From: Nannobrachium achirus
Lineage: Eukaryota > Chordata > Actinopteri > Myctophiformes > Myctophidae
DNA length: 64,000 nt
Direction of reading: 5' to 3'
Assembly: GCA_963921795.1 (NCBI GenBank)
Contig: OY997642.1
Span: 34,009,796-34,073,795, forward strand
The notes beneath the pieces were generated by a model, which saw nothing but the letters and a program-made list of their open reading frames with translations, had not been told where the DNA came from and did not search any database. This document shows positions 1,577-63,271 of this stretch, piece after piece (position 1 is the first letter of the stretch; every line of letters starts with the position of its first letter). Position numbers and translations under genes: made by a program.

Positions 1577-1618
1577 TATTGAAAAATAGCAGATATACAA
1601 GATCTGCTATTTTTGAAA
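1577..1618. repeat. AGATCTACAAG hairpin module, collapsed form
   Basis: Left arm GAAAAATAGCAGATATACAA runs directly into right arm GATCTGCTATTTTTGAAA. The GC-rich loop and inner stem seen in sister copies are missing, consistent with deletion across the hairpin. Confidence 0.7.
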
Positions 1619-1867
1619 AATCTTTTGAAAATTTGTCTTTGATTATTTCAAATCCTTCTGAGGTTTTTAAAAAAAAACTATGTTTCTATGTCAGTGGTGC
1701 TCAAACCTTTTCATGTAAGGACCCCCCAAATTATATGTATTTGGCCACAGACCCCCATCTCAAAATATTTAGTTCCAGGGACCCCCCAGAAGCAAAATTT
1801 GAGTTACAAATGTTCGCTTAAAAATACATATATTCAAAGATTTGCACACATTTTCACGACTTTAAAA

Positions 1868-1931
1868 AAAATAGCAGATCTACAAGCTTGCAGCGCGGCA
1901 CTCAGTGCCGTTTATTTTTCTATTTTTCAAT
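1868..1931. repeat. AGATCTACAAG hairpin module, right arm truncated
   Basis: The left arm AATAGCAGATCTACAAGCTTGC and the loop GCGGCACTCAGTGCCG are present. The right arm is reduced to its last part (TATTTTTCAATAG). Confidence 0.6.
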
Positions 1932-1982
1932 AGCTAAAGTATAAAATAATTAAGGCCCCTCCACCTTGGACTCAGTCCCACT

Positions 1983-2006
1983 CCCCCCCCCCCCCCCCCC
2001 CCCCCC
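1983..2006. repeat. Poly-C run
   Basis: Uninterrupted C run just inside the right end of the hAT-like element. Its length may be unreliable in an assembly. Confidence 0.9.
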
Positions 2007-2253
2007 TTGTGACGCCCCTGCATGCACTCACTGCTGAGGGAAGTTGTTTTAGTGAGAAAGTTTCAGAAAGTAAAGTGGCCAGTCTGTATGGAATGTGACA
2101 TGTAAACAGACCAGTGTCACACATTTAGACAGGACTGGACAGTACAGGACCATCCACTCCAGGCGCTATATAAATATAAATATACAGTCTTAAAAATCGT
2201 TCAAATGGCAGCCCACACAACAACTACAGTATAACGTTGACAGTGGTGAAATG

Positions 2254-2284
2254 AGTTAGTTATAGTTATAGTTATAGTTATAGT
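2254..2284. repeat. (TAGTTA)n short tandem repeat
   Basis: About five units of a six-base repeat reading AGTTAT. Confidence 0.85.
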
Positions 2285-2888
2285 GTGGATGACCCTTAAA
2301 TCCTCAGTGTTAACCACTTTAAATAGTGATAAAAAATCCCCCGGGAACAACATCTTAAGCATTACTACAGCATACTGTTTTACTTTGCTGTATGGCAAAT
2401 AGCAAAACAACCTAATAAGCTCACAACATGTCAAGCTTTTAGATATCTGCAATTTCTGGTATTTGAATGTTTTTGTAGAATGTGGACATTTTTTTTACTG
2501 TTTTTGACAACATACCGTAGTGCCCCAAAATAGGAATGCCAGAATTAAAGTGATTAATCTAACTCTGAGTAAAATGAACACATAGGATTTTTGCTGAATA
2601 TTATTCAGCTGCAGACATGTTTTTTGATACACCCACCACCCACACAATAACACTGAATGAATACATGGTGCAGTACCTCCTCTGTCACTGCATAAATTAT
2701 CATGCTTCCTACCAGATGAAGTCAGATGGCATGATGGCACCCCATATCTCGCTCTGGGAAGTGAGTATGCTAGATTAAGTTTGACAACCAAACATCATGT
2801 TCCTGTTTTATTAGCACTGCAATCCCTGCTTGCTTCTACCACACATGCTGTACAGTTTCTCATCAATGATTCAGTGTGTGTTAAGTCC
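2285..2888. other. Non-coding sequence, nothing recognised
   Basis: No convincing frame, RNA or repeat. Confidence 0.5.
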
Positions 2889-3030
2889 CCACACACACAC
2901 ACGCACGCACGCACGCACGCACGCACACACACACACACACACACACACACACACACACACACACACACACACACACACACACACACACACACACACACAC
3001 ACACACACACACACACACACACACACACAC
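2889..3030. repeat. (CA)n microsatellite with (GCAC)n block
   Basis: About 140 bp of CA dinucleotides with a GCAC-rich block near 2900-2925. All open frames across it on both strands are artefacts of the repeat. Confidence 0.97.
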
Positions 3031-3722
3031 TAATATAAGGACACTGGCTCTGCGGATCCACGTCGAGAATTACGTCCAGGTCACTACACGGCAATGAGGT
3101 CCAATCTCCTGCATAATCTTGACATAAATATTTAGATTTTGCCACTGAGGAGATTCAGCAAATGTTATAACATGCTCTAAGAGCAACACCAAGTTTAGAT
3201 TGAGTCACTGTTCACATCCGGATGACAATGTCGCACCAAGTGAAATGAGTGACAATGGACATCGCACATATACAGTATCCAAGGCGGGTTTGTAATAGTT
3301 GAGAACGCCTTTATCTGAACTGGGAAATTTTAATAATGTGTGATCAGATTACCAGTAGGCTATTATCTCCCAATTTTTGATCACATAATGGTTTTACATG
3401 CTCCAGATCAGTTTAGCACAGGGGCACCAAGAATAAAAGAGATGGATATGTGTTTTCTTAATCTCTTATTGCATTTTAATACAGACAATATGTTAACTGT
3501 CAAACAGAGGGTGGAAGTGTGCTTGTAATTATTGTGTTATCAGAAGGAATAAGATGGAAATCCAGTGTGAGGATAAATGATAAGGATAAAGAAAAACTTA
3601 AGGATTAACATCTCAACAGTTCAATTAACTTACCATGGTATGTGAGAATGAGAGAATTTCTGTTGGATAGCTCCATTCTTCTTCAAGTCTCCTCTCATGG
3701 AGACTACAGTATGTGGGTCCAA
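3031..3722. other. Non-coding sequence, nothing recognised
   Basis: No gene-like or repeat structure seen apart from the element that starts at its right edge. Confidence 0.5.
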
Positions 3723-60718: not shown

Positions 60719-60854
60719 CTTCAGTTGGTCCATGGCTTGTGGGGTGGGGCCCTTTGGGGTGGGGCCCATTGGGGTGGGGCAAGCTCATTTAAGTTATAAT
60801 TATTATAGTGAAATTATATTTTTTTATTCAAATGTTCGTCTTGATATGGGCCAT

Positions 60855-61007
60855 GGATGTTGCAAAATTGTTAATATATTTTGTCTTAGTTTTAGTCATT
60901 ATACTGTAGCCTAGTTTTTAATTTGTTCTTATTTAGTTTTCGTCAGTGAAAAAAGGTAGTCGACGAACATTTTTCTTCATAGTTTTAGTTGACGAAATAA
61001 ACACTGC
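60855..61007. mobile_element. Fragment of a TTAGTTTTCGTC / GTTGACGAAAT dispersed repeat
   Basis: TTAGTTTTCGTCAGTGAAA, GTCGACGAACATTTTTCTTC and TTGACGAAATAAACACTG resemble one end of a fish hAT family I recall. Limits are uncertain. Confidence 0.45.
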
Positions 61008-61891
61008 GTCAGACTTAGTTCTACTGCCAAACTGCAGACAGATCGTCGAAGTGTTCGTCCACATTTGCCACTGCACCACCCAGAAAGGTCCTACTTGATG
61101 CTGGCACGCTCCGCTATGGCAGTGCCAAGGCTTTCTCTGATCGGCTCAGCTAGAAGCGGGCCTACGATTCCCGATGTGCAGGAGATGACTTTGCCTCAAG
61201 CCTTTGGGCCCTGGGAAGCGAACAACCTCTGCACCTTGAGGACTTTGTGTTGGGTGTGTGGGTTAGGTCACGTGTGGGCTGTGTAGCATCCTGGGGTGTG
61301 CCAATTCACCTGAGAATGATTTCCCAACATGCCAATGCTTATCGGTTTAATGTTATATTAATTCTTGTTATTTGAGATAGGTGGTGTTCTACAATCTACA
61401 TGTTTCTTGTAATTCATGTTGTTATTTCATTTCAACATCAAAGGAACAACCACACCAACAAGTCTTTTAAAGCATTTAATACACCACCTTCATCAGCGTA
61501 TCGGTATCTGGCATTATCATTATTTAATGTATCCATTTGATTTCATACTGTAAGTGTGTACAAATTTTGGCTGCAATAGTGTGATGTGGGTGATATGTGC
61601 ATGGTGATCACCTACCCCCGGTCAGGGCTAGCTGCCATACCATATCTAATGGCCAGGTATGTTGATACAATTCAAGGGCATAGAATCCGGCTTGCAAGTT
61701 GAGGCGATAATAGGCTTCAAGAGAAAGTTCATATGAACGGCCGTTAGTTTCGCTGTTTTCCCCCCTGCTGGTATCAAAAAGAAGTATGCTCCATTCAAGT
61801 GAATAGGTTTTAAAGGCACTGGTGGAAAAAAGTACTCACATTTTCTCCTTGAGTAAAAGTATCAATACTACATTGTAGAAGTACTCTGTTA

Positions 61892-62059
61892 GGGTGCCCT
61901 CACACCAAAATACCTAGAGTGGAATCCGCCAATGCATTTCAATGAGAATGGAGCGTTTTTTTGCCAGTAGAGGATTTCTGCAAAAAAACGCTCCATTCTC
62001 ATTGAAATGCATTGGCGGATTCCACTCTAGGTATTTTGGTGTGAGGGCTGAGGGCACCC
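61892..62059. mobile_element. Palindromic MITE with TTA duplication, complete
   Basis: Ends GGGTGCCCTCACACC and GGGCTGAGGGCACCC are flanked by TTA (61889-61891 and 62060-62062). The inner arms of about 60 bp around ATGCATTTCAATGAGAATGG pair perfectly across a 15-nt loop. PIF/Harbinger-like by its 3-bp duplication. Confidence 0.8.
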
Positions 62060-62167
62060 TTACAAGAAGAAGTCCAGAATTAAAAATGTATTGAGTAAAA
62101 GTATTGGCATCAAAAGTATTGGCATCAAAATGTATTTAAAGCACTAAAAGTAAAAGTACAAAATGTG

Positions 62168-62234
62168 TGAAAATAGCAGATCTACAAGCTCACAGCACGT
62201 CGCAATGCGTGAGCTTGTAGATCGGCTATTTTCA
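62168..62234. repeat. AGATCTACAAG hairpin module, unit 1
   Basis: TGAAAATAGCAGATCTACAA and TTGTAGATCGGCTATTTTCA surround GCTCACAGCACGTCGCAATGCGTGAGC. The right arm has GATCGGC instead of GATCTGC. Confidence 0.88.
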
Positions 62235-62949
62235 AATAGCCAAGGTATAAAATAGGGCTAAAGTGGTTTAGGTATGTTGTAAAATATTATATTTTATATC
62301 AGCAAAGTAACTAGTAACTAGGCTATAGTTTTCGAATAAATGTAGTGGAGTAAAAGTACAATAGCCTACCGGTATTTGGATCCCAGATGTAGTGGAGTAG
62401 AAGTAAAACACCAACACCATTCTTGTTATTTGAGATAGGTGGTGTTCTACAATCTACATGTTTCTTGTAATTCATGTTGTTATTTCATTTCAACATCAAA
62501 GGAACAACCACACCAACAAGTCTTTTAAAGCATTTAATACACCACCTTCATCAGCGTATCGGTATCTGGCATTATCATTATTTAATGTATCCATTTGATT
62601 TCATACTGTAAGTGTGTACAAATTTTGGCTGCAATAGTGTGATGTGGGTGATATGTGCATGGTGATCACCTACCCCCGGTCAGGGCTAGCTGCCATACCA
62701 TATCTAATGGCCAGGTATGTTGATACAATTCAAGGGCATAGAATCCGGCTTGCAAGTTGAGGCGATAATAGGCTTCAAGAGAAAGTTCATATGAACGGCC
62801 GTTAGTTTCGCTGTTTTCCCCCCTGCTGGTATCAAAAAGAAGTATGCTCCATTCAAGTGAATAGGTTTTAAAGGCACTGGTGGAAAAAAGTACTCACATT
62901 TTCTCCTTGAGTAAAAGTATCAATACTACATTGTAGAAGTACTCTGTTA

Positions 62950-63103
62950 GGGTGCCCTCACACCAAAATACCTAGAGTGGAATCCGCCAATGCATTTCAA
63001 TGAGAATGGAGCGTTTTTTTGCCAGTAGAGGATTTCTGCAAAAAAACGCTCCATTCTCATTGAAATGCATTGGCGGATTCCACTCTAGGTATTTTGGTGT
63101 GAG
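62950..63103. mobile_element. Palindromic MITE, right end lost
   Basis: Same element as at 61892 but ending GGTGTGAG directly before AAGAAGTCC. The last GGCTGAGGGCACCC and the right TTA are missing. Confidence 0.82.
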
Positions 63104-63204
63104 AAGAAGTCCAGAATTAAAAATGTATTGAGTAAAAGTATTGGCATCAAAAGTATTGGCATCAAAATGTATTTAAAGCACTAAAAGTAAAAGTACAAAA
63201 TGTG

Positions 63205-63271
63205 TGAAAATAGCAGATCTACAAGCTCACAGCACGTCGCAATGCGTGAGCTTGTAGATCGGCTATTTTCA
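63205..63271. repeat. AGATCTACAAG hairpin module, unit 2
   Basis: Identical to the module at 62168-62234, as expected for a recent duplication. Confidence 0.88.

What the first reader, a model, noticed from the sequence alone, without database searches (positions are those of the whole stretch)
1577..63271. One short palindrome recurs about 25 times inside unrelated transposon families
Arms near AATAGCAGATCTACAAGCTC and its complement appear, whole or in part, at 1577, 1868, 3801, 4250, 10461, 16671, 20613, 23356, 26341, 26641/28057, 33809, 36248, 40181, 40438, 51788, 52082, 52633, 53531, 55168, 57661, 57962, 60481, 62168 and 63205. The hosts have different ends: CAGGGTTCCCC, CAGTGGTTCTCAACC, CAGGGGTCTTCAAC, CAGGGGCGTCAC, TAAGGGTGTCGG, CAGTTAATCGA, CAGTGGTTCCCAAACC and CACTGGTGGAAAAAAG. 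Shared descent of the hosts does not easily explain this. The palindrome could be a tiny mobile hairpin, a shared signal for a transposase or host factor, or a module spread by template switching between elements.
Basis: partly seen in the sequence, partly recalled or inferred. Interest (0 to 1): 0.88.

Follow-up and report, generated by a model that had tools for sequence, protein, structure and literature searches.

The report
Palindrome shared by unrelated transposon families
A mirror-image DNA motif of about 70 bases sits inside several unrelated kinds of small jumping genes in a large genome; it seems to be copied along with its hosts and to enter new ones by DNA copying errors rather than by jumping itself, though how it enters is not proven.

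Summary
23 of 25 reported places carry arms of one palindrome; the other two look like remnants. The 1.66-Gb genome has 293,019 + 292,676 arm matches, reversed control 1 + 0. The canonical unit is 71 bp; it covers 1.9% of 27 arbitrary stretches. Hosts differ: hAT elements with 8-bp duplications, two TTAA-bounded families, one TA-flanked family.

Own mobility is not supported. In three host families 172 of 213 listed short alleles are single internal deletions with 112 distinct breakpoints; 41 are unassigned; no recurrent clean empty site was recognised. Direct repeats at the ends exceed chance mainly in one family, C. Marks of intra-palindrome copying: host-specific symmetric extension, family differences mirrored on both arms, an apex in both orientations.

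Best reading: a passenger palindrome multiplied by its hosts and moved between families by palindrome-primed template switching; the transfer step is inferred. A binding-site role or a dead TA-type palindromic MITE is not excluded. Nearest precedent: coral CMITEs.

The parts
1588..1608 (.). short palindrome copy (AGCAGATATACAAGATCTGCT) in a CAGGGGYGTCRC hAT
   Evidence: arm; read by eye
1868..1910 (.). partial palindrome, second copy in the same hAT (1536-2020)
3801..3826 (.). half palindrome beside CAGTTAATCGA-like sequence
4085..4516 (+). hAT host CAGGGTTCCCC, 8-bp duplication GCCTAGCG/GCCTAGTG
4256..4322 (.). palindrome in host A sequence nested in that hAT
10461..10489 (.). deleted palindrome remnant in host D
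16543..16924 (+). hAT-type host CAGGGGTCTTC (no clear duplication) carrying TTAA element B (16651-16791)
16673..16701 (.). half palindrome in B
20415..20912 (+). hAT host CAGGGTTCCCC, exact 8-bp duplication CCCTACAG
20535..20791 (+). element A (TIR TATCGTCGTTGTCGGGTGGAAACC-like) nested in that hAT
20619..20689 (.). full 71-bp palindrome, loop ACC orientation
23135..23528 (+). host D, CAGTGGTTCTCAACC-type ends, no clear duplication
23369..23412 (.). partial palindrome in D
26345..26415 (.). full palindrome in C-type context (CTTTAACTATTG flank)
26648..26676 (.). half palindrome, C-type flank
28056..28086 (.). half palindrome near CCTAAATGGGTTAA (C end)
33677..34036 (+). hAT host CAGGGGTCTTC, duplication TCTTAAAC/TCTTAGAC, with B-type sequence
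33810..33877 (.). palindrome in B-type sequence
36250..36301 (.). old palindrome copy, flanks not matched in the sample
40183..40231 (.). shortened palindrome, C-type flank
40447..40474 (.). half palindrome, C-type flank
51717..52232 (+). hAT host CAGGGGCGTCAC, exact 8-bp duplication GTCCCGGT
51792..51862 (.). full palindrome 1 in that hAT
52084..52150 (.). palindrome 2 in that hAT
52636..52693 (.). two diverged arms
53534..53602 (.). diverged palindrome, flanks not matched in the sample
57668..57725 (.). palindrome 1 in CAGGGGCGTCAC-type element (57574-58094, no clear duplication)
57966..58023 (.). palindrome 2 in the same element
60420..60718 (+). hAT host H CAGTGGTTCCCAAACC, duplication CTCCAGTT/CTTCAGTT
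60493..60509 (+). single arm in H
62170..62232 (.). palindrome in host I (AAAGTAAAAGTAC flank)
63207..63269 (.). second copy by a tandem duplication of about 1 kb of the 62170 region
   Evidence: (family D18, 204 nt, 100%)

Best explanation
It is a passenger palindrome: a near-perfect inverted repeat (35-bp arms, canonical 71 bp, loop of about 3 nt, ends AAAATAGC...GCTATTTT) that lies inside non-autonomous DNA transposons of at least two superfamilies (hAT and TTAA-bounded), perhaps three. Its copy number comes from its hosts: in families B, D and H it was probably already in the founder and amplified with the element (basis: the listed short alleles are deleted palindromes or cannot be assigned; none was recognised as a pre-entry allele). 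It passes between host families without a transposition signature (basis: no recurrent clean empty site and no consistent duplication found). The inferred step is replication- or gap-repair-coupled template switching primed by the palindrome, most likely when an internally deleted element (a MITE) is born and its junction is filled from one of the very many palindromes in the genome. Fold-back copying inside the palindrome would also explain why it takes on a short, symmetric, host-specific extension, why family differences appear on both arms, and why its apex occurs in both orientations.
For: Same core, different flanks. In the loci not fetched for the motif or for a transposase (L010-L036 and window) arms are in 9 of 9 CAGGGGTCTTC-type pairs, 3 of 3 CAGGGTTCCCC, 3 of 3 CAGGGGCGTCAC, 6 of 6 A and 3 of 4 B; with the motif-chosen and piggyBac loci included 10 of 10, 3 of 3, 3 of 3, 9 of 9, 5 of 6 (a few pairs are doubtful by length or duplication). 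Short alleles genome-wide: D 133, B 92, H 21 (controls 0); of those listed, 82 of 100, 77 of 92 and 13 of 21 fit one internal deletion with at most 3 mismatches, with 48, 52 and 12 distinct breakpoints. Filled alleles (gap 62-92): D 1231, B 1258. No CCCAAAC-TA-CTTCTT empty allele among the 21 of H. Arm symmetry between families: positions 4, 20, 25, 29, 30, 32 mostly differ on both arms together in 23 full copies. Symmetric host-specific extension: CACTA (A), GGC (B), CACAAT (D), CCACTAT (G), CAGCACGCAAC (P, L031:4493). Apex in both orientations: D loop AAC 17, GTT 12 of the 35 full-length rows among 100 listed, 235 + 246 GTT-orientation copies genome-wide; A loop ACC 5, GGT 1. An extra CACACAACGTGTG, read as snap-back copying, in one of two neighbouring copies in L042.
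Against: The entry step was never caught. Within D, arms now drift independently: 64 one-arm changes against 1 matching two-arm change, 0.41 expected, so arm copying is rare since amplification; the three listed D copies with ACTATAGG on both arms are identical over the 80 nt shown, lie within 0.6 Mb of each other and probably reflect one event. Orientation classes could be two old subfamilies, not repeated flips, although a rarer variant (AGACGATC, 5 full rows) has both loops (3 AAC, 2 GTT; rows). 18 of 100, 15 of 92 and 8 of 21 short alleles are not simple deletions of my assumed full allele; alleles with gaps of 31-61 nt were not examined. Direct repeats of 7 nt or more at the palindrome ends are in excess (14 of 114 against about 5 in shuffled pairs), 10 of the 14 in C/E-type copies (TTGAAAA/TTTTTCAA): this could be an old duplication in that family. 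The TA-exact class AAAATA|TTTT is the commonest in B (10) and could be read as an empty TA site.
Confidence: 0.45

Rival explanations
1. The palindrome is an old, tiny palindromic MITE (two inverted repeats back to back, like human Made1) with a TA target, that inserted into several transposons and later died; the hosts amplified it.
For: Size and shape match Made1 (two 37-bp repeats around 6 bp, 80 bp). TA stands just outside or at the edge of the arm in hosts A, G, H and others. The TA-exact allele AAAATA|TTTT is the commonest short allele in B (10 of 77 explained) and occurs 4 times in D. Element A, one carrier, is TA-flanked on both sides in 4 of 9 copies, two of which share flanks.
Against: Host flanks continue symmetrically for about 3-11 bp with sequences that differ between hosts, which simple insertion does not give. 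TA-exact alleles in B occur on different right-arm variants (CGGC, TGGC, CAGC), so they look like repeated deletions. No TA empty site among the 21 short alleles of H. No solo copy at a clean TA in unique DNA was recognised, but none was searched for systematically.
Confidence: 0.2
2. The palindrome is a functional cis-acting site, bound by a host factor or by transposases, kept by selection and gained by several element families because it helps them amplify.
For: The core AATAGCNGATCTACAAGCTCACA is kept, with up to about four changes, between families while apex and flanks differ. C has it near both ends. piggyBac and piggyBat transposases bind subterminal palindromes with their cysteine-rich domains (PMC11707139, passages). 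Seven of seven piggyBac transposase loci fetched, of 116 matches, hold arms at up to 4 mismatches.
Against: Position in the element varies: near both ends in C, interior and single in A, B, D. Hosts have different ends and so presumably different transposases. The palindromes described for piggyBac and piggyBat are about 14-19 bp and, by sequence, not this one. Arm-free elements coexist: 7 of 13 CAGTGGTTCTCAACC-type pairs, two of them D copies with an eroded palindrome. D has 133 short against 1231 filled alleles. Sequence near palindromes holds 20,062 of 86,415 repeated bases in 18.9% of the sample, hardly more than its share. Arm density in the piggyBac loci was not tested against background.
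Confidence: 0.2
3. Nesting and descent: the palindrome belongs to one group of TTAA elements (C, B), and the hAT hosts hold it only because such elements inserted into them.
For: B lies inside hAT CAGGGGTCTTC with TTAA at both ends; C-type sequence lies inside hAT CAGGGGCGTCAC; C, E and I flanks are alike.
Against: In A, D, G and H the flanks do not cluster with B or C, and A has its own inverted repeats without TTAA; P, seen in L006, L031 and L043, was judged by eye only.
Confidence: 0.12

Closest known systems
CMITE elements of Acropora corals (PMC2872659; abstract, first part of Results, Discussion read)
   Same: Small elements with different terminal repeats share a strongly conserved internal stretch of about 75 nt of unknown origin; TTAA families; tandem arrays.
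   Different: CMITEs described there are all TTAA/piggyBac-type, about 1600 copies in A. millepora; the word palindrome does not occur in the paper (listing, 0 occurrences). Here the shared stretch is a palindrome, is found in TTAA, hAT and TA-flanked elements, and has about 3 x 10^5 matches per arm orientation.
Made1, human mariner MITE (PMC1784062; abstract and passages)
   Same: A near-perfect palindrome of about 80 bp with arms of about 37 bp.
   Different: Made1 is the whole transposon, derived from Hsmar1; here the palindrome lies inside other transposons, with no shown target duplication or parent.
Angel and other short inverted-repeat elements of teleosts (recalled, not read)
   Same: Fish hairpin-forming non-autonomous elements for which a replication-linked spread was once proposed (recalled).
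   Different: Angel is a whole element family; this is an internal module of several families.
Bacterial REP/REPIN palindromes (PMC3116915, PMC2817692; search listing only)
   Same: Short palindromes in high copy number.
   Different: Those are linked to dedicated REP-associated tyrosine transposases (title in listing; rest recalled); none is known here.
Subterminal palindromes of piggyBac/piggyBat ends (PMC11707139; passages)
   Same: A palindrome near transposon ends, as in C.
   Different: Shorter, bound by that transposase, different in sequence between piggyBac and piggyBat.

Membership tests
hAT superfamily (hosts CAGGGTTCCCC, CAGGGGTCTTC, CAGGGGCGTCAC, CAGTGGTTCCCAAACC) | 8-bp target duplication | tested here: met
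   8 of 8 in window 20415-20912 and 51717-52232, L010 658-1105, L026 3998-4499, L023 1088-1446; 7 of 8 in several others; several pairs show none
hAT superfamily (hosts) | short terminal inverted repeat of YARNG type (recalled) | tested here: met
   CAGGG/CAGTG ends with matching inverted ends
hAT superfamily (hosts) | mobilised by a hAT transposase | not tested
   no search for a hAT transposase was made
piggyBac-like (hosts B, C) | TTAA at both ends with inverted repeats, at different sites | tested here: met
   TTAACCACTTGAACC and TTAACCCATTTAGG pairs and single ends with different outer flanks; some ends depart from TTAA
piggyBac-like (hosts B, C) | parent transposase with the same ends | tested here: inconclusive
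   116 PF13843 matches scored in the genome; no TTAA-bounded ends found in the 7 loci fetched, which hold hardly any TTAA
Tc1/mariner-like (host A) | TA duplication | tested here: inconclusive
   TA on both sides in 4 of 9 copies, two sharing flanks
Made1-like palindromic MITE (the palindrome itself) | clean empty site with single target copy | tested here: not met
   no allele recognised as ancestral among 213 listed short alleles of three families; the TA-exact class recurs on different backgrounds in B
Made1-like palindromic MITE (the palindrome itself) | target duplication around each copy | tested here: not met
   direct repeats of 6 nt or more at the ends of 24 of 114 copies against about 18 in shuffled pairs; of 7 nt or more 14 against about 5, 10 of them in C/E-type copies
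CMITE-like shared internal region | internal region more alike between families than the terminal repeats | tested here: met
   by inspection:
Known RNA family | match to an Rfam model at gathering score | tested here: not met
   0 matches in the window

The most novel reading that the evidence does not exclude
A sequence-specific palindrome spreads across transposon superfamilies with no transposase of its own: it jumps between elements by palindrome-primed template switching during replication or gap repair, becomes the junction filler of newly born MITEs, and reaches about 3 x 10^5 copies because its hosts amplify. It would be a second-order parasite that lives on the DNA-repair step of transposon decay.
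Probability: 0.3. Interest if true: 0.85.

Novelty: new variant of a known kind. Interest (0 to 1): 0.62.

Why it matters
How the interiors of MITEs arise, and why sequence is shared between families with different ends, is an open question; the coral paper calls the origin of its shared interior a mystery. Here the shared piece is a palindrome, it is found in more than one superfamily, and two host families each have over a thousand filled copies with intact 29-32-nt anchors, so deletion, inversion and arm-copying can be read from one genome. It is also a large natural experiment on palindrome instability: in D there are 133 short against 1231 filled alleles, with many different breakpoints.

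Tried and rejected
Own target duplication: direct repeats of 6 nt or more are near chance over all (24 of 114 against about 18), those of 7 nt or more are in excess mainly in C/E copies; the empty form of that TTGAAAAAT repeat was looked for only in the DNA held, where no clean one was seen, not genome-wide. The 7-nt AGAACCC repeat around a half palindrome in piggyBac locus L041 looked like a duplication; no palindrome-free version was found within 3 mismatches, so it is dropped. 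TA insertion in H: no clean allele among 21. Viral source: no exact 21-mer match in IMG/VR. RNA family: none. Text search for the arm sequence in papers: 0 hits. Papers on a palindrome shared by unrelated MITE superfamilies: none recognised in what was listed (1 of 1; 1 of 1; 2 of 2; 15 of 32; 15 of 85; 12 of 32); only those searches support that statement. Direct link to piggyBac ends: inconclusive. Species: not given; a 1.4-Gb European anchovy genome with 24 chromosomes rich in DNA transposons (PMC13403563, passages) made me suspect an anchovy, but identity was not tested. (anchors mis-pasted) and the axis and loop tally were wrong and are replaced. The count of AAC-orientation D copies genome-wide did not complete, so only the GTT count is given. 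Host A short alleles were asked for and never answered.

Full report
OBSERVATION. The arm AGCAGATCTACAAGCTC occurs 35 times in the 64-kb window with up to 3 mismatches; shuffles give 0.11 on average. 23 of the 25 reported positions have an arm there; 10461 is a deleted remnant in host D, and 55168 is a diverged copy judged by eye. The window lies in a genome of 1,658,514,493 bases in 564 contigs, with 293,019 + 292,676 matches to a 20-mer arm at up to 2 mismatches and 1 + 0 for the reversed pattern. In 27 arbitrarily placed stretches (230 kb) a profile finds 80 whole or partial palindromes covering 4,293 bp (1.9%); 6 of 27 stretches have none. Locus L009 was left out of that count because it was chosen for a tandem array, and L001-L008 because they were fetched by the motif.

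ANATOMY. The canonical unit is 71 bp: AAAATAGC, then NGATCTACAAGCTCACA, an apex of about 10 bp per arm, a loop of about 3 nt, and the mirror image. In 23 copies of exactly 71 bp the two arms agree at 25 to 33 of 35 positions. The core AATAGCNGATCTACAAGCTCACA is shared by the main host families with up to about four changes (A has CAAGCACACA, D has CATGCTC); the apex differs by family (ACGCCTCGC in A, B and D; GCGCGGCAC in C and E; ACGCGTCGC in G; read). Family-specific letters mostly occur on both arms at once (positions 4, 20, 25, 29, 30, 32).

HOSTS. hAT elements with inverted CAGGG or CAGTG ends and 8-bp duplications are confirmed, for example CCCTACAG at 20415-20912, GTCCCGGT at 51717-52232, GTCTATAC in L010 and CTCTAAAT in L023; several other pairs have matching ends but no clear duplication. 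B has TTAACCACTTGAACC ends and C has TTAACCCATTTAGG ends, with different outer flanks. A has TATCGTC(G/A)(T/C)TGTCGGG ends and TA on both sides in 4 of 9 copies, two of which share flanks. Nesting is common: A in hAT CAGGGTTCCCC, B in hAT CAGGGGTCTTC, C-type sequence in hAT CAGGGGCGTCAC. Outside the palindrome, 183 flanks form 74 clusters, 20 with more than one member; divergence of old copies inflates this number. 'Different hosts' holds, but the number of independent entries is smaller than the number of host names. The carriers do not dominate the repeats: in 294 kb, sequence within 300 nt of a palindrome is 18.9% of the bases and holds 20,062 of 86,415 bases seen as repeated in the sample; of 199 palindrome flanks, 117 are more than half repeated.

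DOES IT MOVE BY ITSELF? For three families the two flanks were searched genome-wide with a gap of 0-30 nt. D (hAT-type) gave 72 + 61 short alleles, B (TTAA) 45 + 47, H (hAT) 9 + 12, controls 0. Of the alleles listed, 82 of 100, 77 of 92 and 13 of 21 are explained as one internal deletion of an assumed filled allele with at most 3 mismatches, with 48, 52 and 12 distinct breakpoints, mostly with 0-3 nt of microhomology (microhomology was not compared with chance). The commonest have short repeats at the junction: AATAG in D (11) and TA in B (10). The remaining 18, 15 and 8 are more complex or did not fit the assumed allele. Filled alleles (gap 62-92) number 1231 in D and 1258 in B; gaps of 31-61 were not examined. 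So the founders of these families probably already had the palindrome, and it has been eroding since. No recurrent clean empty site was recognised; in H the predicted TA empty allele is absent among 21. Direct repeats of 6 nt or more at the ends occur in 24 of 114 palindromes against about 18 in shuffled pairs; of 7 nt or more in 14 against about 5, of which 10 are C/E-type copies with TTGAAAA or TTTTTCAA. That family-level repeat could be an old duplication and is unexplained. A 7-nt repeat in a piggyBac intron had no palindrome-free counterpart within 3 mismatches. The TA-exact allele of B and D keeps a TA-insertion reading alive.

MARKS OF FOLD-BACK COPYING. (1) Outside AAAATAGC the flanks are symmetric for about 3-11 bp, with sequence that differs by host: CACTA in A, GGC in B, CACAAT in D, CCACTAT in G, CAGCACGCAAC in P; some copies and families (C, F, I) show little beyond 1-4 nt. 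Plain insertion would not do this. (2) In D the loop is AAC in 17 and its reverse complement GTT in 12 of the 35 full-length rows among the 100 listed; genome-wide 235 + 246 copies carry GTT in the fixed host orientation (the AAC count did not complete). In A, oriented by host flanks, ACC is seen 5 times and GGT once, and position 8 shows all four left/right combinations. (3) Three listed D copies, identical over the 80 nt shown and within 0.6 Mb, have ACTATAGG in place of AAAATAGC on both arms; probably one event. (4) In L042 one of two neighbouring copies carries an extra CACACAACGTGTG, which I read as a snap-back. Against a high present rate: within D there are 64 one-arm changes and only 1 matching two-arm change, 0.41 expected. 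So fold-back events are rare now, or concentrated at the birth of families.

BEST READING. A passenger palindrome multiplied by its hosts and passed between host families by template switching, plausibly as filler when an internally deleted element forms. Shown: shared core, hosts of more than one superfamily, erosion by many different deletions, both orientations of the apex. Inferred: presence in the founders, the transfer step and its link to MITE birth. Confidence 0.45. Rivals: a dead Made1-like TA palindrome (0.2), a functional binding site (0.2), pure nesting of TTAA elements (0.12).

COMPARISON. Coral CMITEs share a 75-nt interior between TTAA families with different ends (PMC2872659: abstract, first part of Results and Discussion read). 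They stay within one superfamily, and the word palindrome does not occur in the paper. Made1 is a palindromic MITE of the same size but is a whole element (PMC1784062, passages). piggyBac and piggyBat use subterminal palindromes as protein sites (PMC11707139, passages). Palindrome-linked template switching is reviewed in PMC7999016 (passages). Fish Angel elements are recalled only. No paper seen in the listings was recognised as describing a palindrome shared across superfamilies, and the arm sequence gave no text hit.

Noticed in passing
G000 C2:71.35-71.84 Mb: 16 of the 116 scored piggyBac-transposase matches (PF13843) lie in a 0.5-Mb stretch of one contig, 15 of them without a stop inside.
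   Followed up: no
L037-L043: Seven piggyBac loci, most from groups with the same score and frame length at several places, contain 0, 0, 1, 3, 0, 0, 0 TTAA in 23.8 kb; from the base counts I estimate about 15-20 per locus. The elements seem to avoid their own target site.
   Followed up: partly
L037-L043: All seven piggyBac loci fetched hold arms of the palindrome (up to 4 mismatches); L039 and L041 carry element A sequence.
   Followed up: partly
L009:5062-5588; L003:about 599-740; L025:2700-2830: Palindrome arms lie in tandem arrays (45-bp unit, 25-bp unit, and short hairpins in a row).
   Followed up: no
C1:3789087, 3916101, 4370652: Three copies of host D carry the same multi-base change on both arms of the palindrome.
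   Followed up: no
window 61361-63305: About 1 kb is tandemly duplicated at near 100% identity (copies 1037 and 1058 apart), which doubles one of the reported palindromes.
   Followed up: no
window 21467-22247: A 781-bp hAT-like element with exact 8-bp duplication TCCTAGAT has no arms: a useful palindrome-free control.
   Followed up: no
L017:3282-3352 and other C copies: A direct repeat of up to 9 nt, TTGAAAAAT, brackets the C-family palindrome; its empty form was not searched genome-wide.
   Followed up: partly
window 32699-33130: Open frame that looks by eye like the end of a LINE reverse transcriptase; no family search was made.
   Followed up: no
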